A stretch of 64,000 bases of DNA, from the NCBI GenBank assembly GCA_016928415.1, contig JAFGKU010000124.1, forward strand, positions 1 through 64,000, given 5' to 3'. The stretch is from Spirochaetales bacterium. GTDB taxonomy: Bacteria; Spirochaetota; Spirochaetia; SZUA-6; JAFGRV01. Below the pieces are notes generated by a model. That model did no database searches. It was given only the letters and a program-made list of their open reading frames with translations, and had not been told where the DNA came from. Positions 27,602 to 43,384 of the stretch are shown piece after piece; position 1 is the stretch's first letter, and every line of letters starts with the position of its first letter. The position numbers were made by a program, and so were the translations under genes.

Positions 27602-28984
27602 TCAGCCGCGGCATGCCATTATGAAAACCGTTTTGTCATAATTTCTGACGGACGAAACGAGAAACAGGACCGCTGCAATGCTTCCGGTGAATCCACCGGC
27701 CAGGTATCCAAGTCCGCAAAGTTCATTAATGCCCGACAGGGCTGTCAGGACACTTCCAACCGAGTTTACAAGGAAAAAAACAAGTGCAGCCGCAAACGTT
27801 TTTTTATATTGCTGCAGGTAAAAAAGAAATACCATCAGGGTCAGAAACATGAGATGAAAAAAGACGGCACCCGTCAGGATCCTGAATACCGTAAGGTTTA
27901 CCGCGGTATTGAAAACATACCTGGTCAATTCGCGGGCAAGCAGAATGAAAGCGGCGGTGAAAATACCCTGAAAAAGCGACTGGTCCCTGATGCCGATTCC
28001 AGCCTGCCTGGCTAACTTTTTTTTATTATCCTGTATCCGTTTCAATATACCGGTGTGTATGGTATTGAGGAACTCTCTCAAGCGGACAAAAAAATTCGTT
28101 TCGTTGACAACCATGAAAAAAATCAGGCCCGGAATCATCGTAAGGTTGGCGATATATACCGGGATGTCGTACACTTCAAATACCCTGAAAAAAGTATTAT
28201 TGACCTGGTCCCCCCTGATAATCCAGAATACGATTTTATCTATCCACATGCCCCAGTAATAAAAGATGCCTGAAAACAGCAGGAATTTAAACCGGACCAT
28301 ATAATGCAGGAATTTTTTAACGGAGGGCCGGCACGGTTTGTATTCTTTCAGCGAAACGGCGCCAAGCAGTATAACAATGAGCAGTTGGCCGGCCGCGAAT
28401 CCGAGTACCGCACCTGCGCTCAAAAAAATTTTACCAAGCAAAAAAACAAGGCCGAATGAAACGGCCATGCCCGACAGGTATATGAAAAAGATGAGAAGAA
28501 ACCGCTTCAGCAACGAAATAAAAATCATCAGCAGCCACATGAGATTGATGGAAACGAACAGGATTATTCCTGAAAGCCGGAAAATCAGCGGCCAGGCAAT
28601 ACCTGACAGGTCTATTAAAAACAATGCCGTCCCGCTTATCAGGGCTGCTGATACCGCCACGAATGCGGAAAATACCACCAGGACCGCACCTGCCTCGTTT
28701 TTCCTGTTTTCATAAATGGCATCCGCCACCTGCCGTGTAAAGACATAATGGAATCCGCCGAAAACGGCCAATGAAAAAGCGTAGGAGTAAATGATGAGAG
28801 CCATGAAAAGGCCGCGGGATTCGGCAACGGCATTCCCCGCGAATTTCCCTATCAGGAAAATACCGAATATGGACAAAAGCCATGGGCCTGCTACAATAAT
28901 CGTTCCGATCAAGGCCACCTTTAAAATACTGAAAAGGCCCTGTTTTCTCAAGACCGTCCGGAGTACGAATCCAATTCCCGCCAT
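27602..28984 (-). CDS. pelG: PelG-like polysaccharide transporter
   Basis: N-terminus MAGIGFVLRTVLRKQGLFSILKVALIGTIIVAGPWLLSIFGIFLIG matches PelG; polytopic; adjacent to the PelF-like gene. Confidence 0.85.
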   Translation of the reverse strand: MAGIGFVLRTVLRKQGLFSILKVALIGTIIVAGPWLLSIFGIFLIGKFAGNAVAESRGLFMALIIYSYAFSLAVFGGFHYVFTRQVADAIYENRKNEAGAVLVVFSAFVAVSAALISGTALFLIDLSGIAWPLIFRLSGIILFVSINLMWLLMIFISLLKRFLLIFFIYLSGMAVSFGLVFLLGKIFLSAGAVLGFAAGQLLIVILLGAVSLKEYKPCRPSVKKFLHYMVRFKFLLFSGIFYYWGMWIDKIVFWIIRGDQVNNTFFRVFEVYDIPVYIANLTMIPGLIFFMVVNETNFFVRLREFLNTIHTGILKRIQDNKKKLARQAGIGIRDQSLFQGIFTAAFILLARELTRYVFNTAVNLTVFRILTGAVFFHLMFLTLMVFLFYLQQYKKTFAAALVFFLVNSVGSVLTALSGINELCGLGYLAGGFTGSIAAVLFLVSSVRNYDKTVFIMACRG

Positions 28985-30399
28985 TACTGCCCGTTCCCCC
29001 GTATTTTGTATTCAGGTGAATTCCCGGCATACAGTTCACCGTACCTGCCGAACACATTGTGCCTGTTATAGAATTTTATCACCTTGTTCCTGTTCTGCGC
29101 AATCCGCGCGCTTAATCCGTCGTAATTGTCATAAATATATTTCACTTTCCTTGCAAGCTGGTCGGGGTCTTTTGGGGGCGAAAGGAACCGCTCATCATAA
29201 TTGAGTAATTCCGGGACATTTCCCACGTTCGTGGAAACAACGAGGACCCCTGAACAGAACGCCTCCAGAATAACCAGCGGCTGCGCTTCCCGGATGCTTG
29301 TAAGCATGAGGATATCAAGAAACGAATAATAATCGGCTACCCTCTGCTTGCCGGTAAACACGAATTTCTCCGCCAGCCTGAGATTATCGACAAGTATTTT
29401 ACATTCCTCAAAATAGGCTTCATCCTCGTCCGTCGGCCCTATGCAGTAAAAATTCACTTCCGGTATGAGGTCCAGAATGATCTTGGAGGCTATTATATAT
29501 GTCTTGATGTCCTTGATGGGTACAACCCGGCCTATGAGCCCGATGTGGAATCCCGGTTTCTTCTGTTTCCTGATGGAAGAAAAACTCTCGATATCAATGC
29601 CATTGGGAATAACCATCGTTTTACCCTGCGGCGCCCCCAATTCTACCTGCTTCCGCCTGTTCGCTTCAAAAAGGGATATAATCTTGTCCGCATAACGATA
29701 GCTTATACGGCTTAACGTGTTATAAATGCCTATCCACATGTCGCGCTGGTACCCTTTCACATAACGGGTGCGCTTGATTTCCATTTCCCTCTCCTTATGA
29801 TAAAGCCCGTGCTCGGTGAGCAAAAAAGGCCTGTTTTTTTTGATCCTGGCCATGCTGGCGGCAAGACCGGCATAACCGGTCGAAATGGCATGATAGACAT
29901 CCGCATCCGGCATTTCAGTTCCCAGTATATTGAAAATCATCAAGTGGCTTGAATTCCAGGCCCAGAAATAATCGGAAAACGGGTAGGCCGGATTGCGGGA
30001 TTGGTTTCCGGATGTCAGCATTTCCCACCCCGTTTGATTCCGGACCGCGTCATCATGGAGAAAATATCCGCCGGGCAGCATGTGCGCCACCGTATCGATG
30101 GACGGCAGGTCTCCGGATTCAAACCGCTCATGCATTATTCTGATTTCATCAAAAAGCTTTTTCCTCCGGAAAAGCCGTCCGGACTTACGTGTTTCCATGA
30201 TCACGACATCCTTGTGACCGAGGACATTTTCCGGGAATTTGTAATGCAGGCTTTGATTCGCCTTCGGTGAAATGGAAAAAACCAGGAAATCGAAACCCGG
30301 AAGGTTTTGAATGAGCTGGTGCACCCACGCGCCCACTCCTCCCGTCACATACGGATACGAACCTTCGACTATCAGGCAAACCCTTAATCGTGATTTCAT
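28984..30399 (-). CDS. pelF: PelF-like GT4 glycosyltransferase
   Basis: MKSRLRVCLIVEGSYPYVTGGVGAWVHQLI, IPNGIDIESF, IREAQPLVILEAFCSGVLVVSTNVGNVPELL. Confidence 0.9.
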   Translation of the reverse strand: MKSRLRVCLIVEGSYPYVTGGVGAWVHQLIQNLPGFDFLVFSISPKANQSLHYKFPENVLGHKDVVIMETRKSGRLFRRKKLFDEIRIMHERFESGDLPSIDTVAHMLPGGYFLHDDAVRNQTGWEMLTSGNQSRNPAYPFSDYFWAWNSSHLMIFNILGTEMPDADVYHAISTGYAGLAASMARIKKNRPFLLTEHGLYHKEREMEIKRTRYVKGYQRDMWIGIYNTLSRISYRYADKIISLFEANRRKQVELGAPQGKTMVIPNGIDIESFSSIRKQKKPGFHIGLIGRVVPIKDIKTYIIASKIILDLIPEVNFYCIGPTDEDEAYFEECKILVDNLRLAEKFVFTGKQRVADYYSFLDILMLTSIREAQPLVILEAFCSGVLVVSTNVGNVPELLNYDERFLSPPKDPDQLARKVKYIYDNYDGLSARIAQNRNKVIKFYNRHNVFGRYGELYAGNSPEYKIRGNGQ

Positions 30400-30400
30400 G

Positions 30401-31171
30401 TCAAAATGGTTCCTTTGGTTTGAGGGGATACAGGGCCTCAAGCCAATAGCTGACCAGGTCCTTTTGTTTCCTGGTCAGCTTTTCTTCCATGGATTTAAGC
30501 GTACGGCAGATCTCATGCACCTTGTTGAAATTGTGGCGGTGGAATTCTATCTCAGCCTGTAAAAGAAGATAAAAGGGATCATTATCCGCCGTGTCAAAAG
30601 ACTTGACTATTTCCATGCTGTTGGAAAAAAGGTCAAAGCCGTTCAGGATCTTCACGAGCATCTCAATTTCATCTTTTTTCAATCCCTTTAAACGGGTGAC
30701 CCCCTTCATGTACCGCAAAGATTCTTTCAGGTAAAATTTCTTGATGGGAATTCTCCGCTCGTTTAAAACGGCCAGTTCAAAATATAACCGGGCCAATTTG
30801 CGGCTTCCTTCCGACCCGGCGTTTTGGGCGAATTCCTTTTTCATATTTTCTATTTTGGAAATATACCGAAGCTCGATCAGGTTAATGCATTCGGCGGCAA
30901 ACAGGGCTATCTCAGGGTCCCTGTTCTTTAATAGCTGTTCCAATATCCTGTAAAGGGGCCGGTTCATACTTAAGTCCATATCCTCGCGCGCAATAATGCG
31001 TTCCAGTTCCTCGAAGGAAAAGGAATGTTCATCCAGGGGATTCGTGGACGTGCTTTTATAAATAAAGTGTTCAATGGGAAGGAGCCCGGCTTCATAGGCC
31101 TTAATGGCGGATGAAGGCGTTCTGGGAACGTATCCGCGTATTTCTTTTGTAAAAAAATCTATATTCTTCAT
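30401..31171 (-). CDS. PelE-like cytoplasmic helical-repeat protein
   Basis: Position between PelD-like and PelF-like genes; NRDPEIALFAAECINLIELRYISKIE resembles the PelE soluble region; no TM segment visible. Confidence 0.5.
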   Translation of the reverse strand: MKNIDFFTKEIRGYVPRTPSSAIKAYEAGLLPIEHFIYKSTSTNPLDEHSFSFEELERIIAREDMDLSMNRPLYRILEQLLKNRDPEIALFAAECINLIELRYISKIENMKKEFAQNAGSEGSRKLARLYFELAVLNERRIPIKKFYLKESLRYMKGVTRLKGLKKDEIEMLVKILNGFDLFSNSMEIVKSFDTADNDPFYLLLQAEIEFHRHNFNKVHEICRTLKSMEEKLTRKQKDLVSYWLEALYPLKPKEPF

Positions 31172-31173
31172 TC

Positions 31174-32601
31174 CTACAGCTTCTGCATCTCCAGGAGATT
31201 TTCGGCCACGTTGATAAGTTCGTCAGCCGAGTGCTGGGATTCCCCCAGAGAAGCGTAACCCAATATTATCTCGGGAATGATTATTTGGGCCCTGACATGC
31301 CATTCGGCAGTATTGATCATTTCCAGAAGGTTCAGGCAGAACAGGGATGCGCCGTCATAATCGAGATTGGGGTAAAGGAGGCATATCTGCGAATCCGATT
31401 TATAATGAAAAACCCTGGCATGACCCTCGGACAGCTTTTTAATGGATTCAGAGAGGCCTGTATAAAACCTGAAAACAAGCTCCTTGCCAAGTTCGCCGGC
31501 CAGTTCCGGGTAATTGGTCAATTCGAGGATGAATATGGAAAGGGTCTGCTTTTCAATATTCACCCTGTTTAATTCCGTTTCCAGTATGACGAAAAACTGG
31601 GAAAACGCCGGCAAACCCGAAACGGGATGCACGGCCTCGTGGACGGCAAAAGTATCATACTCTATGGCCCTGTCCAGTGCAGGCCCCGCCAGGGCCATGA
31701 TGAGAAGAAGCAGCTTTTCCGTATAGAGATTATATTTTTCAAAGGGCAGTTCCTCTATATTCAACACACCCCATATGTTATGACCGGCCAGGATGGGAAC
31801 GGTAAAAAGATTCCGGCCTGTATCCATTTTTTTTATGCCTTCATTCTTTATAAGCATTTTAGCGGAGAACAGGATGTTATTCCTGACCACCCACCCCTCA
31901 ATACAGTCATCAGCCATTAAAGTCATTCCCCGGAATACGTAATCCTCTGACCGGGTATGGGCCTTGAGGATCAGGTATTTGTATTCCTTTTTATATTCCC
32001 ATATGGAACAGCTGGTGGCACCGGCAAACCGCTCGACCGCCTCCACGAGGGCATCCAGGGCCTTTTCAAGACTGAGGGAATAAAGGCCGTGGATACGCGT
32101 GTACAGGGCGATGATGGAATCCTCCTGTGTCAGGACCCGGCCATCCAGTTCGGCATTCACCAGTTTCAGGGCATTCGTTTCCCTCTTTAAAATACCCTTT
32201 TCCCTGCTGATGGTTTTCAGGCGGGCCTTAAGCTTTTGTATCCTGGAGAAGGAAGAATCCCTGACGGCACCGAAAATGATAATACCCAGCAGAGTCATGA
32301 TTCCCGGTATCATGGCCTTGTCCGCCAAATCCCGCCAGTAATCCGTTACCGCCAGTTCAGGCCAATAGGCAACCCGTATAAACGGGAAAGGAAGCGCAAC
32401 CAGAAAAACCATGAGAACGGCGCTGTAAAGACCTTTATATAATCCGTAATAAACCGATGCAAACAGGGCAAAAAACAGGTAGGGATTGATTACGGAATTT
32501 AGAAAACCGGGGTTATCCGGAAAAAAAAAATTAATCGCCGTGATGACAAGCGCCATCAGGGTGATTTCCCCAAAATGCCTGAACGTTTTTGACAATTTCA
32601 T
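31174..32601 (-). CDS. pelD: PelD-like protein: TMs, GAF domain, degenerate GGDEF domain
   Basis: About four N-terminal TMs, GAF-like region (FAGATSCSIWEYKKEYKYLILKAHTRSEDYVFRGMTLMADDCIEGWVVRNN), C-terminal GGDEF fold with HYKSDSQICLLYP in place of RYGGDEF. Confidence 0.75.
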   Translation of the reverse strand: MKLSKTFRHFGEITLMALVITAINFFFPDNPGFLNSVINPYLFFALFASVYYGLYKGLYSAVLMVFLVALPFPFIRVAYWPELAVTDYWRDLADKAMIPGIMTLLGIIIFGAVRDSSFSRIQKLKARLKTISREKGILKRETNALKLVNAELDGRVLTQEDSIIALYTRIHGLYSLSLEKALDALVEAVERFAGATSCSIWEYKKEYKYLILKAHTRSEDYVFRGMTLMADDCIEGWVVRNNILFSAKMLIKNEGIKKMDTGRNLFTVPILAGHNIWGVLNIEELPFEKYNLYTEKLLLLIMALAGPALDRAIEYDTFAVHEAVHPVSGLPAFSQFFVILETELNRVNIEKQTLSIFILELTNYPELAGELGKELVFRFYTGLSESIKKLSEGHARVFHYKSDSQICLLYPNLDYDGASLFCLNLLEMINTAEWHVRAQIIIPEIILGYASLGESQHSADELINVAENLLEMQKL

Positions 32602-33578: not shown

Positions 33579-34541
33579 TCAATCCTGTTTCCCTTCGTAA
33601 TAATCAAACGCGTCAATAATATCCAGGTAAACGCCGTCAAAGCCGGCATCGATTATTTTTTTGATGTACGAATCCTCATTTCCGTATATTACCGCCTGCC
33701 ATTCACCGATCCAGTACTTTACCTTGAAATTCCCCTTCCAATACGGGTTTTCCTCATCCAGCCAGGAAGGGGGGTGCTGCTTCCATCCGTTTTTCCAGTA
33801 ATACCTGTACGATTCCGCTTCACCGATGCTCATGTAAGAGATAACCAGCCTTTTTTTCCCACGGGCCTTTTTTTTCAGCACGGCAATATCTTTCTTCGAA
33901 AGCGGGTCTTCATTGAAAAAAAGATCCGTTATTATCAGGTCATAATTCTTTGATGTTAATGCTTCGATAAACAAATGTTTTTCGTCAAATTTTCCCGGAT
34001 TGATCATGTATAAAAAATTTTCAGCATCAGGAAGAGAGCCTACATTGCCGTCGTTCACATGAAAAGGCTTGAAAGGATAACCGGGTACCTTATCAAGCAT
34101 ACGGCTGTCAGCCGCAAAGGAGATAAAACCTTCTCCTGCATTTCTGGCATAGGAATCATCCATGTATTTCCTTTTGGAACAATAGTCGATTGCAAGAATC
34201 CCGATTTCAGCCTTTTTGGCCAATTCAAGATATCTTAACAGGTATTCGGAATCCGACTCCCTTGTCGGCACATTATCATCATCATAGCCGTAAAACAGGT
34301 CTTCCTGCGCCACCCCGTCAATAGCATTCAAATACGATGTGTCTTCTGTATCCAGCAGTTCATTGCCGTTCTGCGTAATGACGATGAATCCCGGTTTCAG
34401 TTTTTTGGCATAACGGCTTAAATCTTTGACGAAACCGCGCATTTCATCCCTGTAATCAAGTTTCTCGCAAGCAAGACTGGAAGTGATGAGCAGGATGAAA
34501 AGGAGGTATATTATTGGTTTATTATACATGATTTTCCTCAC
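33579..34541 (-). CDS. GH114/TM1410-like lipoprotein related to the glycoside-hydrolase domain of PelA
   Basis: Lipobox LITSSLAC; VISYMSIGEAESYRYYW, YWIGEWQAVIYGNEDSYIKKIIDAGFDGVYLDIIDAFDYYE. ATG at 34529 is a likely alternative start. Confidence 0.85.
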   Translation of the reverse strand: MRKIMYNKPIIYLLFILLITSSLACEKLDYRDEMRGFVKDLSRYAKKLKPGFIVITQNGNELLDTEDTSYLNAIDGVAQEDLFYGYDDDNVPTRESDSEYLLRYLELAKKAEIGILAIDYCSKRKYMDDSYARNAGEGFISFAADSRMLDKVPGYPFKPFHVNDGNVGSLPDAENFLYMINPGKFDEKHLFIEALTSKNYDLIITDLFFNEDPLSKKDIAVLKKKARGKKRLVISYMSIGEAESYRYYWKNGWKQHPPSWLDEENPYWKGNFKVKYWIGEWQAVIYGNEDSYIKKIIDAGFDGVYLDIIDAFDYYEGKQD

Positions 34542-34924
34542 TCTCCCAAAGGAAAGATCAGCTTTTCCCTGATCAAACCGAAAAATTGATTGACCTCACC
34601 CACATCCCCGGAAAACCTCCAGCCAAGATGCTCATGGCATTCCCTGCAGGCAAGGATGGACCACAGGTACCCGGGAAACCAGGAATATTCGCCGACCGGT
34701 TCGGACACCTCCATCACGTTTTCACAATACCCGAAGGTTATGATGTTGAATGAAAAACCGTGCGGATTGGTGAATGTATGGAACGGAGAATCACCCGTGA
34801 CGGTAATCATATATTTCTTGTCGGATATGGAGGTCTTGCACCTGACACACACAACTTTCCCGTCATTTTCATCAGCGTCGGTAATGATTTTGGGGTCAGT
34901 CAGGCTGAGGTCCAGCAAGACCAT
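34538..34924 (-). CDS. Stand-alone CULT (cereblon-like) domain protein
   Basis: CVRC…HTFTNPHGFSFNIITF…EYSWFPGYLWSILACRECHEHLGWRFSGDVGEVNQFFGLIREKL; two CxxC pairs and Trp82/88/102 at CULT-type spacing; SD AGAGGAG before ATG 34924. Confidence 0.9.
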   Translation of the reverse strand: MVLLDLSLTDPKIITDADENDGKVVCVRCKTSISDKKYMITVTGDSPFHTFTNPHGFSFNIITFGYCENVMEVSEPVGEYSWFPGYLWSILACRECHEHLGWRFSGDVGEVNQFFGLIREKLIFPLGE

Positions 34925-34941: not shown

Positions 34942-36612
34942 TTATTTACTCTTGAGAACGTATATTCCATCCCAGTCCGGAGGCGGAGGATTTTGGACAT
35001 ACCCATTGCACCGCGCCATGAGGATTTTTGAAGGCATGTCATCCGGATTTTCCCTTAAAATACCGGCAAAACTCTGTGCCGCTCCCTTCCATTGCTTGGC
35101 GAAGTATAGTTCTATGGCCGAGTTAAAGGACTGGATGAGTTTGAGTGTCCCGGGCTGAACCTTTGCCTTTGAGGCCAGTAATTCATAGATGCGCAGTCCT
35201 TCCGTTTTGCCTTTTACGATTACCTTGTCAATAAGCCTGGTCGCCATGGTATCCTTCACTTCCTTATACGTGTTTTCCGTAATAAGAATCCCCGTACCGT
35301 AATGTTTGTTCAGGCCTTCCATCCTGCTGGCCACATTAGCCGGGTCACCCATCACCGTATAGTTGAACCTGCGCTCGTATCCAATATTCCCCACGATTAC
35401 TTCGCCCGTATTGATTCCGATCCGTGTGGACAATTCCATGATGCCCCGCTCCTTTAACTCCCTGTTGAAATTCCTTAAAAATTCCTTGGTGGCCAGGGCG
35501 CCTTCACAGGCGTAATACGCATGTTTTTCCACATCCAGGGGGGCATTCCAGAAAGCCATGATGCAATCACCTATGTATTTATCAATGGTGGCCTTGTTAT
35601 TAATCAGGGTCTCCGTCATGCCTGAAAAATATTTGGCCAGAATTTTTATCAATTCCTCGGGTTTCATCGACTCCGCGAAGGTGGTGGAATCCTTTATATC
35701 CGAAAAATAAATTGTCAAAACACGTTTCTCCCCGCCCAAAACCGCTTCTTTTTTGAGTGCAATCAGCTGCTTCACGAGGTCCGAAGGTACATACTTCTGA
35801 AACGACCGCAGACTGGCCTTGACATTGTCAACCGTGTTGTCAATGCTCTTGATTTCCCTGAATACCGTTTTCAGATTGAGTGTGTCCTCAAACCGGTATT
35901 CCCGGATCCGGCTTATGTCCTTTTCGAGAAGGCTCAAGGGACTGGTAATCCTGCTGGAAAGGAACATGGAGATCAGAATTCCGAAAACAATGACCCCTGC
36001 CGTAATAAGCATAATTATCAGGAGTACCTGGTTCTCATAATCCAGAACCGTTTTCGCGGAAATATCGATTCCCAGTATGCCGGCAAACGCACCGCCGGCT
36101 GTTTTAACCGGCGCGTATCCCGATATCCACACACCCCATTCATCCTCGGCGAATTTCGACTCTATATAGATCCCGTCCCTGTTCCGGAACACATCCTCCA
36201 TCTCCCGGGTGGCATCCGAGTAAACTTCCCCTATGTCCGCACGGGAAGAAGGATCCGGGTCGCCGTCAACGGCAAAGGCGTATTCCCCCTTATCGTTCAG
36301 TTTCATGGTGTATGCATACCTTACGTCGGTAGCATTCTCCCTCAGGTAGGAAAGGGAGTTGAATATTCTCTTGTATGCCTCCGTTCCCTCCCGCGCAGGT
36401 GAATCGATCGTAATCAGGTCATCTCCGCCGATTGCAGGAATTCCCATTGCAAGGATGTCATGCATCCGTTTTACCAGGTCTGTTCGCATGGCCTGCTTAA
36501 CGGTGAAAAAAGACAGGATGCTCAAGGCGACGCTGGTAATCACTATGATGAGAATGAAAGCAGTGGAAATACCTATATTGATACTGACAAAAAAACGCTT
36601 GCCTTTACCCAT
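34942..36612 (-). CDS. Class III adenylate/guanylate cyclase with extracellular sensor and HAMP
   Basis: Cache-like extracellular domain, HAMP, cyclase catalytic domain (YFSDIKDSTTF…DKYIGDCIMAFWNAP…RIGINTGEVIVGNIG…YTVMGDPANVASRME). ATG 36612 follows GGGGGAGG. Confidence 0.9.
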   Translation of the reverse strand: MGKGKRFFVSINIGISTAFILIIVITSVALSILSFFTVKQAMRTDLVKRMHDILAMGIPAIGGDDLITIDSPAREGTEAYKRIFNSLSYLRENATDVRYAYTMKLNDKGEYAFAVDGDPDPSSRADIGEVYSDATREMEDVFRNRDGIYIESKFAEDEWGVWISGYAPVKTAGGAFAGILGIDISAKTVLDYENQVLLIIMLITAGVIVFGILISMFLSSRITSPLSLLEKDISRIREYRFEDTLNLKTVFREIKSIDNTVDNVKASLRSFQKYVPSDLVKQLIALKKEAVLGGEKRVLTIYFSDIKDSTTFAESMKPEELIKILAKYFSGMTETLINNKATIDKYIGDCIMAFWNAPLDVEKHAYYACEGALATKEFLRNFNRELKERGIMELSTRIGINTGEVIVGNIGYERRFNYTVMGDPANVASRMEGLNKHYGTGILITENTYKEVKDTMATRLIDKVIVKGKTEGLRIYELLASKAKVQPGTLKLIQSFNSAIELYFAKQWKGAAQSFAGILRENPDDMPSKILMARCNGYVQNPPPPDWDGIYVLKSK

Positions 36613-36613
36613 A

Positions 36614-37633
36614 TTATCCTCCCCCGTACCATCCGGTTTTGTCAACAGAGGGTGTCCGCCCTCCCCGCATAATACTCTGATATAAAAAAATTTTTAAAAG
36701 CGCTTTATGAATTTCCGCCCTTTCCGAACGCAGTTTTTTTTCGGTTTCCAGGGCCAGTATAAGGACGCCGTTCACATCCGCGTAAGAATAATTTTTATCC
36801 GCCTCCAGAAAAAGCTTCTGGCTCTTTTTAAAGCGAATATTCAAACGGGCAAAAAGTTCCGATCTGGAAAAATTCTCCAGGCTCAACTGTTTAAACGCCA
36901 TCAGGTTTCTGATCTGGTATAATAACCCGCTTAAAAGCGCCGCATAGGTTACCTCGCCGGCCAGTAAAATTTTATCCAATGTTTCCAGGGCGGCCACAAA
37001 ATCGCGTGATGCGAACCTTTCGAAAAGCGTGAAAGGGTTTTCCTCCCTGCTGTGAAAAACAAGCGATTCAATGTCATCCAGGGTTATCATTGAACCCGGC
37101 TTATAGTAGGTGACGAGTTTTTGACATTCCGTTCTCAGGTCTTTCGTATTGTTTTCCACCGCCTCAAGAAGATAATTCAGGACGTCGGGTTCAATTTTAA
37201 ACTGCCGTTGTTTGAAGAAAGTGAAAAGCCAGTTCCTCTTCTGGCTCTCATTGAGCTCCCAGAAAATGACACGGTTCGACGCCGGTATGGCATCGGAAAT
37301 TTTCCTGCTGACTTCCCCTATGCTTTCCGATACCAGTATAAGGGTGGTTTTCCTGTTCGGATTCTTGAGATAATCCACAAGTATATTCAGATCCTGCTGT
37401 TTTTTAACCTGCTCCACGCCGGAAAGGATCATGATGATATATTGTGAAAAAAGGGAACCGGTCAACAGCTTCGATATCAGGTCCGGCAGTTTGGCTTCAA
37501 AAAAATAATACCTTTGAATCTCCGGTTTCTCACCGGCCGCCTTGCCGATTTTTTTTACGAGTTTCTGGATGTAAAGGCCTTTCTCCCCCTCTTCCGGCCC
37601 AAGAAGGAGAAACAGGGACATATCGTTAAGCAT
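36614..37633 (-). CDS. holA: DNA polymerase III subunit delta
   Basis: HolA-type layout: LFLLLGPEEGEKGLYIQKLV; NTKDLRTECQKLVTYYKPGSMITLDDIESLV. Confidence 0.8.
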   Translation of the reverse strand: MLNDMSLFLLLGPEEGEKGLYIQKLVKKIGKAAGEKPEIQRYYFFEAKLPDLISKLLTGSLFSQYIIMILSGVEQVKKQQDLNILVDYLKNPNRKTTLILVSESIGEVSRKISDAIPASNRVIFWELNESQKRNWLFTFFKQRQFKIEPDVLNYLLEAVENNTKDLRTECQKLVTYYKPGSMITLDDIESLVFHSREENPFTLFERFASRDFVAALETLDKILLAGEVTYAALLSGLLYQIRNLMAFKQLSLENFSRSELFARLNIRFKKSQKLFLEADKNYSYADVNGVLILALETEKKLRSERAEIHKALLKIFLYQSIMRGGRTPSVDKTGWYGGG

Positions 37634-38237
37634 AGGACCTTATGACACAGGCAAGCCTGCCTACAATTCTTACATCTGTTGTATAGATGGGTGAAAAACG
37701 CGGGTTCGCGGATTGAAGCCTGACCCTGTTCGTTTCTTTATACAGTTTCTTGAGAGTCACCGAGTCATCTAACATGGCAACTACGATCTGGCCGTTTTCG
37801 GCATCATTCTGCTGGCGGATGACGGCAATGTCCCCTTCCAGTATTCCGGCGTCCTTCATGCTGTCACCCTTGACGTTCAGGGCAAAATGAATGCCGCTCC
37901 CCAGGAACTGCGAAGGGACATCAATTGTACCATCAAGGTTTTCCGCGGCTAAAAGCGGTTTCCCGGCGGCCACGTTCCCGAGAAGCGGGACTTTTTTCAC
38001 AGGCTCGTCATCGGATGATGATTCATCATCCATGACCTCCAGGGCCCTGAATTTGGACAGAATGCATTTTATCCAGCCTTTTTTCTCGATTGCCTTGATG
38101 TGGTCATAACTTCCCTTGACGGAAATATCGAAATTATCCGCCACCTCCCGGAACGTCGGCGGATATTTATGGTCACCGATAAATGATTTAATAAAAGTGA
38201 AAATTTCATTCTGACGCGGTGTAAGATTTTTTTTCAT
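37626..38237 (-). CDS. lexA: LexA repressor
   Basis: wHTH LTPRQNEIFTFIKSFI…GYPPTFREVADNF-like; cleavage site VAAGKPLL; catalytic GDSMKDAGI and Lys in VTLKKLY. Confidence 0.92.
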   Translation of the reverse strand: MKKNLTPRQNEIFTFIKSFIGDHKYPPTFREVADNFDISVKGSYDHIKAIEKKGWIKCILSKFRALEVMDDESSSDDEPVKKVPLLGNVAAGKPLLAAENLDGTIDVPSQFLGSGIHFALNVKGDSMKDAGILEGDIAVIRQQNDAENGQIVVAMLDDSVTLKKLYKETNRVRLQSANPRFSPIYTTDVRIVGRLACVIRSYA

Positions 38238-38248
38238 AAGGCCACCTT

Positions 38249-39616
38249 TCACCGTTTGACTTTAATGCCAAACTTTTTGACTTTCCCATGCAAATTGCTG
38301 GGATATATCCCCAAAACCTGTGCCGTTTTAGAGATATTGTAATCATTCTCCTTCAGCTTCCTCAATATGAATTCCTTTTCAAAATAATCCTTTGCGTCAT
38401 TCAGCTTCATGGAGTCGTACTCACCAGCAACAGTGTCCTTCTCAAGCACCTCCTTGTTGAAAAGGTACTTTTCAACCGTACCCAGGGAAATTATTTCCTC
38501 ATCTGACATAATGTTAATACGTTCAATAAAATTTTTCAATTCTCTTATGTTCCCCGGCCAGTCATATTTCTTTAAAAATTCCATGGCTCCCGGGTCAAAA
38601 GAACGCGGTTCCGGCAACGAGGCCTTTTTGAATTTCTTCATAAAATAATCGACCAGTTCTTCCATGTCATCGATTCTTTCCCTCAGGGGAGGAAGAAAAA
38701 TCGGAATAACATTCAACCGGAAATAGAGATCTTCGCGGAAACGCCCCGCCTTTATCTCTTCTTCAATATTTTTATTCGTTGCGGTGATGAACCTGATATC
38801 CACGGACAAGGTATTTTCACCCCCGATGCGTTCAAATTTCTGTTCCTGAACGGCCCGCAATACCTTGGCCTGCGTGCTTAACGACATATCGGCGATCTCA
38901 TCAAGGAAGAGCGTGCCCTTGTGGGCCAGCTCAAATTTACCTTTTCTCGTGGCCACGGCGTTGGTAAAAGCGCCTTTCTCGTGCCCGAAGAGCTCGCTTT
39001 CAATGAGGGTTTCAGGTATGGCGGCGCAATTCACCTCTACAAACGGCCCTTTTGCCCGGTCACTTTTCCTGTGAATTTCCTTGGCGACAAGCTCCTTGCC
39101 GGAGCCGTTCTCCCCCAAAATCATGATCCGGGAACTGGATTTCGCACTTTGATCTATCAATTCCCTGATCTTGATAATGCCCGGGCTGTTCCCTATCATC
39201 CGTTCTTCCATCACCAGTGAATTTTTCAAATTCCTGTTTTCCTGTTTCAGATCCTCTATTTTAAGGGCATTTCTCACTACGGTGATCGTTTTATCAAGTG
39301 ATAACGGTTTTTCAAGAAAATCAAACGCCCCCATCTTTACCGCCTTGACGGCGAGATTGATGTTGGCATGCCCGGAAATGATGATGACCTCGAGGTCCTG
39401 GTATTCCTCCTTGATTTTCTTTAAAACATCCATACCGCCCATGTTGGGTAGCCAGACATCCAGAATGACGAGGTCTACCATTTCCCTTTCAAGAACGCCT
39501 AATCCCTTTATACCGTCCTCGGCAAGAAAAATCCTGTAGCCCTCATCGGCCAGTACATCCTTTAAAACGTTTCTGATTCCGGGTTCATCATCTATAATTA
39601 ATATTGCAGTCATCAA
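38249..39616 (-). CDS. Sigma-54-dependent response regulator (NtrC/NtrX family)
   Basis: Receiver (VDLVILDVWLP), AAA+ (GENGSGKELVAKEIH, GAFTNA, GTLFLDEIADM), Fis-type HTH. Confidence 0.93.
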   Translation of the reverse strand: MMTAILIIDDEPGIRNVLKDVLADEGYRIFLAEDGIKGLGVLEREMVDLVILDVWLPNMGGMDVLKKIKEEYQDLEVIIISGHANINLAVKAVKMGAFDFLEKPLSLDKTITVVRNALKIEDLKQENRNLKNSLVMEERMIGNSPGIIKIRELIDQSAKSSSRIMILGENGSGKELVAKEIHRKSDRAKGPFVEVNCAAIPETLIESELFGHEKGAFTNAVATRKGKFELAHKGTLFLDEIADMSLSTQAKVLRAVQEQKFERIGGENTLSVDIRFITATNKNIEEEIKAGRFREDLYFRLNVIPIFLPPLRERIDDMEELVDYFMKKFKKASLPEPRSFDPGAMEFLKKYDWPGNIRELKNFIERINIMSDEEIISLGTVEKYLFNKEVLEKDTVAGEYDSMKLNDAKDYFEKEFILRKLKENDYNISKTAQVLGIYPSNLHGKVKKFGIKVKR

Positions 39617-39651
39617 GGCCTCTTTAAAAAAAACTCCCCTGTGCCGTTATT

Positions 39652-41418
39652 CTATTCTCCGAACGGGAGATCGATAAAGAAAGTTGTTCCCACTCCCTTT
39701 TTACTTTCGAACCATATATTTCCATTATGATCAAAAACTATCCTTTCTACAATAGATAATCCCAAACCGGTACCATCTTTTTTAGTGGTAAAGTAAGGAT
39801 TAAATATCATATCACGGTACTCTTCATCAATACCGGTTCCCGTGTCCATAATTTGCAGCCTGAAATACCTTAAAAGGCCCTTTCGCACCTCATCGCCGTT
39901 TACCACTATTTTACCGCCCTCCGGCATGGCGTGGATGGAATTCTTGAACAGGTTGCCTATGACATGTTTTATCTGATTCGGATCTATGTTAAGTACGACC
40001 GATTCATTGAGTAAATCCAGATCAATGGTAACATTCTGTGAAACGCTCCTGTATATTTCGGCTACTTCCGCGAAAAGATCCTTCAAATTCACCTTTTCCT
40101 TTTTCAAATCCGGCAGGCGGGTGAATTCCTTGAATTCGATTAAAAGCCGGTCCAGGTTATTCACCTCGTTTATAATGGCGGAGATGGCAGAATCGAGCAT
40201 TAATTCAAAGCCCTCACGGTCGCCATGATACTTTTTCAGAATCCTTTCTGCCGAGAGCCTGATCGGCGTCAGGGGATTCTTGATTTCGTGGGCCAGCCTT
40301 TTGGCGATTTCCTGCCATGCGGCGTGCCGTTCCGCATGCACCAGTTTCTTTTTTGACGCTTCCAGTTCCGCCACCATCGTATTAAAGGAATTGACGAGAA
40401 TGGAAAGCTCATCACTCGCCTTTATAAGCACGCGGTAGGAAAAATCTCCCTCGGCCACGCGCTGTATGGCATCCTCCAGGTGAACGATCGGCCGGATAAT
40501 TTCGTCGGTCAACAGGAAACTCACCAGGATCGACAGCAGGAAAATGGGGAACGAAAAAATAATATAAAATATAACGACCACCAGTCCGAAAACGTCCTTG
40601 TAATTATCAAGCTGCTTGAATGCAATGCGAGCGGCGGTGATGCTCTTGGCGTAATTATTGAATTCCTGTTTTAAAATCGTTCCTACGATGACATAATAAT
40701 TCCGGCCGCCGGATGCAGCTGGAATGATTGCCCTTAATATACTCAAATCTTCCTTTTCTTCCCTGGGTAAAAACCCGGATTTCCCCCTTACCTGGTTAAA
40801 ATCGGTTATTCGCGCCTTTGGGGAATCTCCCCTGTAAAAAAGTTCTTTGCCGCCTTCGGTGAAAACCTGTATCATGTTCAGGGACGGGTTAACACTTGAT
40901 ATGCGTTTAAACGCGGCGCCGGGGTCATGCCCGAGGTCCGAAAAGAAATAAGGCAAAACCGGGCTGTCCATGAACGATTTTAAATTTTCCACCCGGTCCG
41001 AATAATAATCCAGGCAAACCTGCAGCCCGCCTTCCAGCGCATCCACAACACGAATGGCAAACCAGAATTTAATACTGGAATTAATGAAGGTGATGGACAG
41101 AATGGCCTGCGGGATCAGCGAAAAAAGGGCGACAAACGCGAAAAACAGGATCAAACGCGTCTTGAGCCGCGCCCCCGGCCGTCTTACAGACCGCTCCCTG
41201 ATCAGCTTGACAATATTGACCACGATAGCGCCCAGCAGAATCAGGGGAAGAATGATTGAAGCGGCTATAATAACAAAATTAATCAGGGGATTGGCCAGAA
41301 TGATGTTCGATAATATCTGTTGAGAGAAAAAAAGGATCAGGCCTATAAGTAAAATATAAAAAAGGGTAAGGACAATGAGACCTGTGGGCGTGGAACTGCG
41401 GGACAGGCGTATTTTCAT
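39652..41418 (-). CDS. NtrY-like sensor histidine kinase
   Basis: Multiple TMs, HAMP, HisKA RLAHEIKNPLTPIRLSAERIL, HATPase (GTGIDEEYRDMIFNPYFTTKKDGTGLGLSIVERIV). Confidence 0.92.
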   Translation of the reverse strand: MKIRLSRSSTPTGLIVLTLFYILLIGLILFFSQQILSNIILANPLINFVIIAASIILPLILLGAIVVNIVKLIRERSVRRPGARLKTRLILFFAFVALFSLIPQAILSITFINSSIKFWFAIRVVDALEGGLQVCLDYYSDRVENLKSFMDSPVLPYFFSDLGHDPGAAFKRISSVNPSLNMIQVFTEGGKELFYRGDSPKARITDFNQVRGKSGFLPREEKEDLSILRAIIPAASGGRNYYVIVGTILKQEFNNYAKSITAARIAFKQLDNYKDVFGLVVVIFYIIFSFPIFLLSILVSFLLTDEIIRPIVHLEDAIQRVAEGDFSYRVLIKASDELSILVNSFNTMVAELEASKKKLVHAERHAAWQEIAKRLAHEIKNPLTPIRLSAERILKKYHGDREGFELMLDSAISAIINEVNNLDRLLIEFKEFTRLPDLKKEKVNLKDLFAEVAEIYRSVSQNVTIDLDLLNESVVLNIDPNQIKHVIGNLFKNSIHAMPEGGKIVVNGDEVRKGLLRYFRLQIMDTGTGIDEEYRDMIFNPYFTTKKDGTGLGLSIVERIVFDHNGNIWFESKKGVGTTFFIDLPFGE

Positions 41419-41424
41419 TATTTT

Positions 41425-42027
41425 CTACAATCCCTCGCTTGCATTGATATCGGACCTTATCCAGCCCGATGTCAGGTTCATTGAACCGAACAGTGTAATG
41501 ATATGCAGCGGGGGTTCAAATTTAACCGGTGAGAGTCCTATCCTGGCCTGGACATAGTACTCGCTGAAATTATCGCGGTTGATCTCCGCCAGACGGTAAT
41601 TCGATATCACGAAATAATTTTTCAGGAAATCAAAGATCGATCCGTATTCCGAATAACCGGAATTTTTCTTTTGAATAACATATGTCTGCGAAAAGAAATC
41701 CCGGTATCCCGTATACGACTCCTCTTTCTCAAGAATAAGCTGGTCCCCAAGGAAGGCAAACAGGCCTTTTGCTTTCTTGTAAAGCCTGAACTGGAAGGAG
41801 ATTTCACTTTTAAATCCATCGTTCAGACTCGGGATGAATTCCTGGGATTCATCCCACTCAAGTGCCGCCGTCACCTTTAATTCAAAATTGTCCATTCTTG
41901 CCGACAACACCGTATTGAACAGCGGATAAACTTTAGGGATTGAAAAGCAGCCGAAAAAAAATACAAGCATCAGGACCGGGGTTAAAGAGGATTTTCGGGT
42001 TTCCTTTACCACACACGCAAAATTCAA
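41425..42027 (-). CDS. DUF4390-like secreted protein
   Basis: Signal peptide; RMDNFELKVTAALEWDESQEFIPSLNDGFKSEISFQFRLYK; next to ntrY. TTG 42027 follows the ptsH stop and an SD; the track frame to 42099 would overlap ptsH. Confidence 0.55.
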   Translation of the reverse strand: MNFACVVKETRKSSLTPVLMLVFFFGCFSIPKVYPLFNTVLSARMDNFELKVTAALEWDESQEFIPSLNDGFKSEISFQFRLYKKAKGLFAFLGDQLILEKEESYTGYRDFFSQTYVIQKKNSGYSEYGSIFDFLKNYFVISNYRLAEINRDNFSEYYVQARIGLSPVKFEPPLHIITLFGSMNLTSGWIRSDINASEGL

Positions 42028-42028
42028 C

Positions 42029-42295
42029 TTACTCTTCCTCGAATTTATTGTCGAAAAGACGGGATAAAACCTCCACAGCCTCCTTTTCATCCAAACCATC
42101 GGCTATAATTTTCAATACCGTCTGGTAAGTGGCGCCCAGACTGATTACTCCCATAATCGATTTGGCATTTATCTGTTCGGATCCCTTCTCCAGCAGAATC
42201 TTAGAGGCAAACTTGCTGGCTGTTTGAACCAGAAGAGCTGCCGGCCTGGCATGAATACCGGCCCGGTTCTTGATAGTCACTTTTTTTTCTGTCAT
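42029..42295 (-). CDS. ptsH: HPr phosphocarrier protein
   Basis: NRAGIHARPAALLV with active His; KSIMGVISLGA regulatory Ser site. Confidence 0.93.
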   Translation of the reverse strand: MTEKKVTIKNRAGIHARPAALLVQTASKFASKILLEKGSEQINAKSIMGVISLGATYQTVLKIIADGLDEKEAVEVLSRLFDNKFEEE

Positions 42296-42400
42296 CCTAA
42301 CTGGGAACCCCTGATACCTTTATATTATCGCAAGCAATATAGTTATATAGTTTTTAACTAACTACATTCTATTTATATAACGCTTCTCTCTATCAACATA

Positions 42401-43384
42401 TTATTTATATAAATGCTTTTCTTCGAGAAAGAAAGTCCTGGCGCTTTTGGTTTCAAGCCAATTCATCACATTCCGGCTGAATTCCTTCGTGGAGTGATAT
42501 CCCATCCGCTTGAGTCTTTCATTCATTGCCGCGGTTTCTATGATGATCGGGATATTACGGCCCGGCTTGACCGGTATAACGAGAAAAGGCACCTTCACAT
42601 CAAGTATGTCCGTTGTTTCCTCGCTGCCGATCCTGTCGTAGATTTTATTGGCATCCCATTCTTCAAGCTGAACAACGAGCTGGATTCTTTTCTCGTCACG
42701 GATGGCGCCGACACCGAATAAGTGGGTAATATTGATGATACCGAGTCCCCTTATTTCCATGTGATGGCTTATCACCACGCTTGCTCCCTTGCCGAATAAA
42801 ATATTGCCGCTGACACACCGTATGTTTATGGCGTCGTCGGCGACAAGCCGGTGCCCCCTTTCAATGAGCTCCAGGGCAATTTCACTTTTTCCCACGCCGC
42901 TGTCACCCCTGATAAGTATACCGACGCCGAATACCTCTACAAGCACGCCATGAACGGTCTGGTGCGGTGCGAACACGTCGGAGAGGACCCTTATGATACG
43001 CGCTGAAAATTCCGAAGAAGCGAGATCCGTCTGTAATACGGGACATTTCAATTTCTCGGCCAGGTCCAGTATGGTTTTACTTGGCTTGTATCCGTACGTA
43101 AATATACAGCAGGGCACTTCATACTGGAATATTTTGACAACCGTTTCCATATTCCCGTCTTTCTCCAGTTTGGCCAGGTAAGAATTCTCGCCCCTCCCGA
43201 ATACCTGGATCCTTTTATAGGCAAAATTTTCAAAAAAGCCGCACAAGGCCAGGCCGGGCCGGTCAATTTCAGGCACCGTGATTTCGCGGATGAGCCCGGG
43301 GCGTCCCGCGATGCATTTCAAATTCAGGGCATCATGTTCCTTCAGGTCAAGCTGGAGTAAATCGAGTACTGTAAATTTTTCCAT
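42401..43384 (-). CDS. hprK: HPr kinase/phosphorylase
   Basis: GILIRGDSGVGKSEIALELIERGHRLVADD; EIRGLGIINITHLFGVGAIR. Confidence 0.94.
   Translation of the reverse strand: MEKFTVLDLLQLDLKEHDALNLKCIAGRPGLIREITVPEIDRPGLALCGFFENFAYKRIQVFGRGENSYLAKLEKDGNMETVVKIFQYEVPCCIFTYGYKPSKTILDLAEKLKCPVLQTDLASSEFSARIIRVLSDVFAPHQTVHGVLVEVFGVGILIRGDSGVGKSEIALELIERGHRLVADDAINIRCVSGNILFGKGASVVISHHMEIRGLGIINITHLFGVGAIRDEKRIQLVVQLEEWDANKIYDRIGSEETTDILDVKVPFLVIPVKPGRNIPIIIETAAMNERLKRMGYHSTKEFSRNVMNWLETKSARTFFLEEKHLYK

What the first reader, a model, noticed from the sequence alone, without database searches (positions are those of the whole stretch)
34538..34924. Stand-alone bacterial cereblon-type CULT protein with a complete thalidomide-binding Trp cage
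Seen: 128-aa protein with Zn-type pairs C26-x-x-C29 and C93-x-x-C96, and W82, W88, W102 in SWFPGYLW…HLGW, plus the FTNPHGF…F and QFFGLIRE motifs. Established: CULT domains occur in eukaryotic cereblon and as single-domain bacterial proteins such as MsCI4 of Magnetospirillum gryphiswaldense, where a three-Trp cage binds uracil/thalidomide-like cyclic imides; as I recall it, the cage spacing there (6 and 14 residues) is the same as here. Inference: this is a functional ligand-binding CULT protein. Its cellular role is unknown, so the operon context is valuable.
Basis: partly seen in the sequence, partly recalled or inferred. Interest (0 to 1): 0.85.

Follow-up and report, generated by a model that had tools for sequence, protein, structure and literature searches.

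The report
Bacterial single-domain relative of cereblon
A spirochaete gene encodes a small zinc protein with the same tryptophan pocket that binds thalidomide in human cereblon; such bacterial proteins have been known since 2015, but this one belongs to a separate branch that looks closer to cereblon than the bacterial model protein does, so it bears on what the pocket originally evolved to bind.

Summary
Window 34538-34924, minus strand, encodes a 128-residue single-domain CULT protein with both CxxC pairs, the NPxG hairpin and cage residues W82, W88, W102 and F104. Sequence search finds MsCI4 (E 5.6e-20) and human cereblon (1.3e-18). An AlphaFold2 model (pLDDT 87) superposes on ligand-bound MsCI4 at 0.8-1.0 Å. 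The kind of protein is not new: bacterial CULT proteins, including one spirochaete, were described in 2015. Three points go beyond the finding. (1) The protein is not of the MsCI4 type. It lies in a well-supported clade of one Spirochaetota family plus SAR324, and the profile of its close relatives scores cereblon above MsCI4. Placement next to cereblon is suggestive only, since the AU test does not reject alternatives. (2) In all four genomes of the family that hold the locus, CULT follows lexA-holA, directly in three and after one inserted gene in the window. Elsewhere its neighbours vary, so context gives no shared function. (3) CULT carriers nearly always encode protein isoaspartyl methyltransferase (PIMT): 32 of 33 in Spirochaetota, against 95 of 265 non-carriers. 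This fits a reader of C-terminal cyclic imides but is confounded by phylogeny. Ligand binding is likely; the cellular role remains inferred.

The parts
34538..34924 (-). CULT-domain protein, 128 aa (P0001), single domain, no signal peptide evident
   Evidence: ORF; phmmer to MsCI4 and cereblon; Pfam PF03226; AlphaFold2; Foldseek; single copy in genome
36614..37633 (-). HolA, DNA polymerase III delta subunit; directly upstream of CULT in three relatives, one gene upstream here
   Evidence: Pfam PF21694; synteny
37626..38252 (-). LexA repressor (LexA_DNA_bind + Peptidase_S24)
   Evidence: Pfam; synteny
38249..41418 (-). Two-component pair: sigma-54 response regulator (38249-39616) and HAMP histidine kinase (39652-41418), NtrX/NtrY-like; same locus in relatives
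   Evidence: Pfam; synteny
41425..43384 (-). DUF4390 protein (41425-42099) and HPr kinase (42401-43384), upstream end of the conserved locus; relatives carry an 88-aa ORF between them, probably HPr
   Evidence: Pfam; synteny; HPr is inference from length and position
34942..36645 (-). Adenylate/guanylate cyclase inserted between holA and CULT in this genome only
   Evidence: Pfam PF00211; absent between holA and CULT in L015-L017
33579..34541 (-). GH114 (TM1410/MJ1477-type) putative lipoprotein, start overlaps CULT stop by 4 nt; not conserved beside CULT in relatives
   Evidence: Pfam PF03537, TIGR01370 just below cut-off; no counterpart in loci

Best explanation
This is a probably cytoplasmic single-domain CULT (beta-tent) protein. 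One zinc ion, held by C26/C29/C93/C96, pins the two sheets together. W82, W88 and W102 with F104 form an aromatic cage that takes up a six- or five-membered cyclic imide ring; N53 and the NPHG hairpin hold the first Trp in place. These steps follow from homology and the model. Inferred beyond that: the natural ligand is a C-terminal cyclic imide (aspartimide or glutarimide) on damaged or PIMT-processed proteins, as for eukaryotic cereblon, and the protein acts as a stand-alone reader that marks, sequesters or hands on such proteins. Uracil or uridine would then bind only through chemical mimicry. My rough estimates: CULT family membership 0.98; functional imide-binding cage 0.85; C-terminal cyclic imide as natural ligand 0.45. 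The confidence given is for the whole statement.
For: Sequence match to MsCI4 and cereblon with all cage and zinc residues. Model pLDDT 87.3, with blocks of residues 21-120 at 93-98. Foldseek rmsd about 0.8-1.1 Å over about 101 columns to most MsCI4-ligand complexes; a CRBN-DDB1 complex with GLUL-cN is also among the matches (9nr3, 1.3 Å). C26, C29, N53, W82, F83, G85, W88, C93, C96, G101, W102 and F114 invariant in 44 bacterial homologues. MsCI4 binds thalidomide and uridine with low-micromolar affinity (PMC4449219). Human cereblon recognises C-terminal cyclic imides (PMC12117711), and PCMT1 can make them (PMC11974815; PMC13001092). Genuine PIMT (PF01135, E<1e-20) occurs in 32 of 33 CULT-positive Spirochaetota against 95 of 265 CULT-negative; by genus 21 of 22 against 62 of 118, p 6e-5. 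It also occurs in 16 of 16 CULT genomes reached through loci outside the Spirochaetota. In one Spirochaetota genus CULT follows ClpB directly.
Against: The PIMT link is not corrected for phylogeny or genome size. PIMT is near universal in the class of Desulfospira (214 of 216), so the 143 CULT carriers there say nothing, and one CULT-positive Spirochaetota genome (G234) has no genuine PIMT. PIMT also has its usual isoaspartate repair role. Neighbouring genes do not converge on proteolysis or repair: they include CysZ, Der, HemD, Rrf2, HerA and others. No fused or conserved partner that would act on a captured protein was found. Cage geometry was not measured on coordinates.
Confidence: 0.5

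Rival explanations
1. It is a uracil/uridine (pyrimidine) sensor or buffer: the cage recognises free uracil, uridine or uracil in damaged DNA, and the lexA-holA neighbourhood reflects a DNA-damage or replication role.
For: MsCI4 binds uridine and deoxyuridine in the same cage, with structures 4v31. The 2015 authors proposed a DNA-damage link. In the window's family CULT lies in the lexA-holA gene string.
Against: The lexA-holA linkage exists only in this family; in other families of the order holA is on another contig from CULT (G008, G012). lexA and holA here belong to a long string with two-component and HPr kinase genes. No shared palindrome was seen upstream of the string. Authors of the MsCI4 work say no biological context for uridine could be consolidated.
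Confidence: 0.2
2. It is a metabolic or xenobiotic sensor for a free small cyclic imide, lactam or hydantoin-like compound (for example dihydrouracil, succinimide, creatinine-like molecules), with signalling through a partner protein.
For: MsCI4 structures hold small lactams and imides, such as valerolactam 5ohb. Part of the MsCI4 domain unfolds when ligand leaves and folds on ligand binding, which suits a switch (PMC4449219). In the window a cyclase lies directly upstream.
Against: No conserved partner gene across phyla; the cyclase is absent beside CULT in the relatives. Promiscuous small-molecule binding is also expected of an imide reader.
Confidence: 0.2
3. It is another member of the beta-tent fold (yippee, Mis18 or MsrB type) with a decayed or different pocket, and the cereblon resemblance is superficial.
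For: Pfam's best model is Yippee-Mis18 PF03226.
Against: PDB search gives cereblon and MsCI4 at E down to 1e-20 and no yippee or MsrB hit better than 0.04 even with profiles. All three cage Trp are present and conserved in 44 homologues. No separate CULT model turned up in the Pfam results, and the 2015 paper places yippee and CULT as related families.
Confidence: 0.02

Closest known systems
MsCI4 (MGR_0879), Magnetospirillum gryphiswaldense CULT protein
   Same: Single-domain bacterial protein, same fold (rmsd about 0.8-1.0 Å), zinc pairs, NPxG hairpin and three-Trp cage with identical spacing
   Different: Only about 34% identical. Falls in a different clade (99/93; 100/99 without human). 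F104 replaces Y101, as in human cereblon, which has Phe there. One more residue between the first zinc pair and NPxG
Eukaryotic cereblon (CRBN) thalidomide-binding domain
   Same: Same cage and zinc site. Clade profile A4 scores CRBN at 77-86 bits, above MsCI4 at 73-76; the mainstream bacterial profile A5 scores MsCI4 at 109-116 and CRBN at 69-79. Human CRBN attaches beside this clade in the trees (99/93; 95/84 without L061)
   Different: No LON domain and no DDB1-binding region; bacteria of this kind have no known ubiquitin-ligase system (general knowledge). AU test does not reject placing human CRBN on the MsCI4 side (p 0.26 and 0.41)
Leptospira sp. B5-022 CULT protein (WP_020769190.1)
   Same: Spirochaete single-domain CULT listed in the 2015 description (PMC4287342)
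   Different: Not compared directly here. The other Spirochaetota CULT proteins in the tree fall on the MsCI4 side
SAR324 CULT proteins (L029-L032, L112-L116)
   Same: Nearest relatives outside the family; L029-L032 are 39-44% identical; same clade; EHLGWRF and KxPxxFF-like motifs in L029-L032
   Different: Different genomic neighbours: two-component and TPR lipoprotein genes, zinc ribbon, aminopeptidase; some SAR324 genomes carry the MsCI4-side type instead

Membership tests
CULT domain family (Lupas 2015) | Significant sequence match to cereblon/MsCI4 CULT, better than to yippee, Mis18, MsrB, RIG-I | tested here: met
   MsCI4 5.6e-20, CRBN 1.3e-18; yippee and MsrB only at 0.046 or worse with profiles
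CULT domain family (Lupas 2015) | Two CxxC zinc motifs | tested here: met
   C26/C29 and C93/C96, invariant in 44 homologues
CULT domain family (Lupas 2015) | Three invariant cage tryptophans plus aromatic at the fourth position, and NPxG hairpin | tested here: met
   W82, W88, W102, F104, N53-P54-x-G56, aligned to MsCI4
CULT domain family (Lupas 2015) | Beta-tent fold with cage geometry | tested here: met
   AlphaFold2 pLDDT 87.3, the 50 Foldseek matches shown are all MsCI4/CRBN, best 0.8-1.0 Å; cage distances themselves not measured
CULT domain family (Lupas 2015) | Binds thalidomide, uridine or cyclic imides | not testable with these tools
   Needs purified protein
MsCI4-type bacterial CULT subgroup | Groups with MsCI4 in a tree | tested here: not met
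   Separate clade with Spirochaetota family f1 and SAR324, 99/93 and 100/99
Eukaryotic cereblon orthologue | LON domain plus DDB1-binding region fused to CULT | tested here: not met
   128-aa single domain with no other domain
Eukaryotic cereblon orthologue | CULT domain phylogenetically sister to cereblon | tested here: inconclusive
   Trees place human CRBN with L061 beside the clade, AU test p 0.26 and 0.41

The most novel reading that the evidence does not exclude
The window protein represents a cereblon-side bacterial CULT lineage (Spirochaetota family f1, SAR324 and the deltaproteobacterial L061). In this reading the thalidomide pocket arose in bacteria as a stand-alone reader of C-terminal cyclic imides made by PIMT, and eukaryotes took it from this lineage and fused it to a LON domain and the ubiquitin system.
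Probability: 0.2. Interest if true: 0.85.

Novelty: new member of a known kind. Interest (0 to 1): 0.42.

Why it matters
The physiological job of bacterial CULT proteins is an open question, although MsCI4 is used as a stand-in for cereblon in drug work. A small relative from the branch that scores nearest cereblon, with human-like F104, would be a useful test protein. It also allows a clean experiment on whether reading PIMT-made C-terminal cyclic imides is older than the ubiquitin system.

Tried and rejected
1. Shared operon context as a clue to function: clustering neighbours of 93 CULT loci gave lineage-specific sets only (CysZ in Desulfobacteraceae relatives, Der in Rhodospirillales, HemD in Desulfobulbales-type loci, ClpB in one Spirochaetota genus, lexA-holA in the window's family); no same-strand adjacent family recurs across phyla.
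2. LexA box upstream of the lexA string: no palindrome shared by the four genomes in up to 420 nt; the test is crude.
3. CULT-PIMT link in the class of Desulfospira: uninformative because PIMT is nearly universal there.
4. Apparent loss of CULT in G004 of the same family: that assembly also lacks holA, so the locus is probably missing from an incomplete genome.
5. CULT in viral contigs: three pattern matches, none a relative.
6. A single indel as a marker of the cereblon-side clade: the clade has one residue more than MsCI4 between the first zinc pair and NPxG, but L061 does not share it; counted by eye, as the scripted count failed.
7. Pel polysaccharide link: a GH114 gene overlaps CULT and a Pel cluster lies beyond it, but in two relatives CULT neighbours the Pel cluster without GH114 and in one no Pel cluster was seen in the fetched stretch, so it is treated as neighbourhood, not function.

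Full report
Observation. The ORF at 34538-34924 is real but lies on the minus strand. It encodes 128 residues with C26-x-x-C29, N53-P-H-G56, W82, W88, C93-x-x-C96, W102 and F104. It is the only copy in a genome of about 5.1 Mb in 243 contigs, 85% complete. The organism is very probably a member of Spirochaetota: the locus of same-family genome G002 (L015) has the same CULT gene and neighbours as L028, a record titled Spirochaetales bacterium.

Identity. phmmer against all PDB sequences finds only cereblon and MsCI4 significantly: 5.6e-20 for a humanised MsCI4, about 4e-19 for the commonest MsCI4 sequence and 1.3e-18 for cereblon. Pfam gives PF03226 Yippee-Mis18; the 2015 description of CULT explains that relation (PMC4287342). 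NCBIfam has no match. An AlphaFold2 model from 44 homologues has mean pLDDT 87.3, below 50 only at residues 9-17. All 50 Foldseek matches shown are MsCI4 or cereblon; the best is 6r0q at 0.8 Å over 101 columns. The cage was not measured on coordinates; the conclusion rests on superposition plus aligned Trp residues.

Known background. The 2015 paper already lists single-domain bacterial CULT proteins, mainly from deltaproteobacteria, and one from a Leptospira strain. MsCI4 binds thalidomide and uridine in the low micromolar range, but its authors could not find a biological context (PMC4449219). In human cells the domain recognises C-terminal cyclic imides of Asn and Gln (PMC12117711), which PCMT1 can generate (PMC11974815; PMC13001092). 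I found no paper in the held library that gives a function for a bacterial CULT protein; subscription journals are mostly not held.

Distribution. CULT is common: 14 of 61 relatives, the own genome included, 33 of 298 sampled genomes of the phylum, 143 of 216 genomes in the class of Desulfospira joergensenii and 19 of 52 in the phylum of a SAR324 locus (one of these a weak fragment at E 2e-4). A scan of the species collection gave 217 confirmed stretches. None was confirmed in viral contigs.

Which branch. A profile made of the window protein's nearest relatives (A4: three Spirochaetota family members and four SAR324) scores cereblon constructs at 77-86 bits and MsCI4 at 73-76. A profile of mainstream bacterial CULT proteins (A5) scores MsCI4 at 109-116 and cereblon at 69-79. 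Single-sequence scores agree in part: L028/L015 and L016 prefer human cereblon, the window protein itself is neutral (72 against 73 bits), and L061, a deltaproteobacterium, prefers human strongly (96 against 62). In a tree of 103 CULT domains the window protein sits in a 13-member clade with its family and SAR324 (99/93), and human cereblon plus L061 join it (99/93). Without the longest branches the clade remains (95/92), human joins it at 95/84, and without human the clade has 100/99. The AU test does not reject human cereblon on the MsCI4 side (p 0.26; with L061 0.41). I therefore take the separate clade as well supported and the closeness to cereblon as a lead. Only about 104 alignment columns and one eukaryotic sequence were available.

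Context. In the three other family genomes that hold it, the order is HPr kinase, an 88-aa ORF (probably HPr), DUF4390, histidine kinase, sigma-54 response regulator, LexA, HolA, CULT, with 10-50 nt between HolA and CULT. In the window a cyclase gene is inserted between HolA and CULT and a GH114 gene follows with a 4-nt overlap. The fourth relative, G004, lacks both HolA and CULT, so it is probably a gap in an incomplete assembly. In other families of the order holA and CULT are unlinked in the two genomes compared, G008 and G012. Among 93 loci no same-strand adjacent family recurs across phyla. The lexA-holA link is therefore family-specific synteny, and I do not read a DNA-damage role from it.

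Partner enzyme. Because human PCMT1 makes the cereblon mark, I asked whether CULT carriers have PIMT. In Spirochaetota 32 of 33 carriers have a strong PF01135 hit against 95 of 265 non-carriers (Fisher p 2e-12 by genome; 6e-5 by genus; raw tables). The 16 carriers tested outside the Spirochaetota all have it. In the class of Desulfospira PIMT is nearly universal and the comparison is empty. The Fisher tests ignore phylogeny and genome size, and I chose the 1e-20 threshold after seeing the table, so this is supportive, not proof.

Mechanism. Shown by homology: fold, zinc site, cage residues. Inferred with good confidence: cyclic imide binding. Inferred with moderate confidence: the natural target is a protein C-terminal aspartimide or glutarimide. 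Unknown: what happens to a captured protein, since no conserved effector was found; adjacency to ClpB in one genus is a single-lineage hint.

Verdict. A confirmed, well-conserved new member of a known family. The value lies in its branch, whose profile scores cereblon above MsCI4, and in testable predictions about PIMT.

Noticed in passing
window 27602-32601, minus strand: Pel-type exopolysaccharide genes: PelG (PF16933, E 8.6e-89), PelF (NF038011), an unassigned 256-aa protein and a 475-aa GAF/degenerate-GGDEF protein resembling PelD; same set beside CULT in two relatives (L016, L017). The neighbouring GH114 putative lipoprotein may be the matching hydrolase.
   Followed up: partly
L025:5083-8255 and L027:3199-6218: CULT lies directly (17-50 nt) downstream of a ClpB-type disaggregase gene in one Spirochaetota genus; a possible tie to protein quality control, but in a single lineage.
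   Followed up: partly
L061:7439-7924: Deltaproteobacterial CULT (CG_4_9_14_3_um_filter_63_12) scores 96 bits to human cereblon and 62 to MsCI4, the most cereblon-like bacterial CULT in the set; it lies next to NfnAB/GltD-like genes. Transfer from a eukaryote is not excluded.
   Followed up: partly
G471 and G451 (class of Desulfospira joergensenii): Two genomes carry two CULT genes each, while the other carriers in that sample have one.
   Followed up: no
L017:8915-9301: The CULT copy of family member G003 is on a long branch: the NPxG hairpin reads NTFG and the cage loop is WFLPYSW, though all three cage Trp and the zinc pairs remain; possibly relaxed or altered ligand choice.
   Followed up: no
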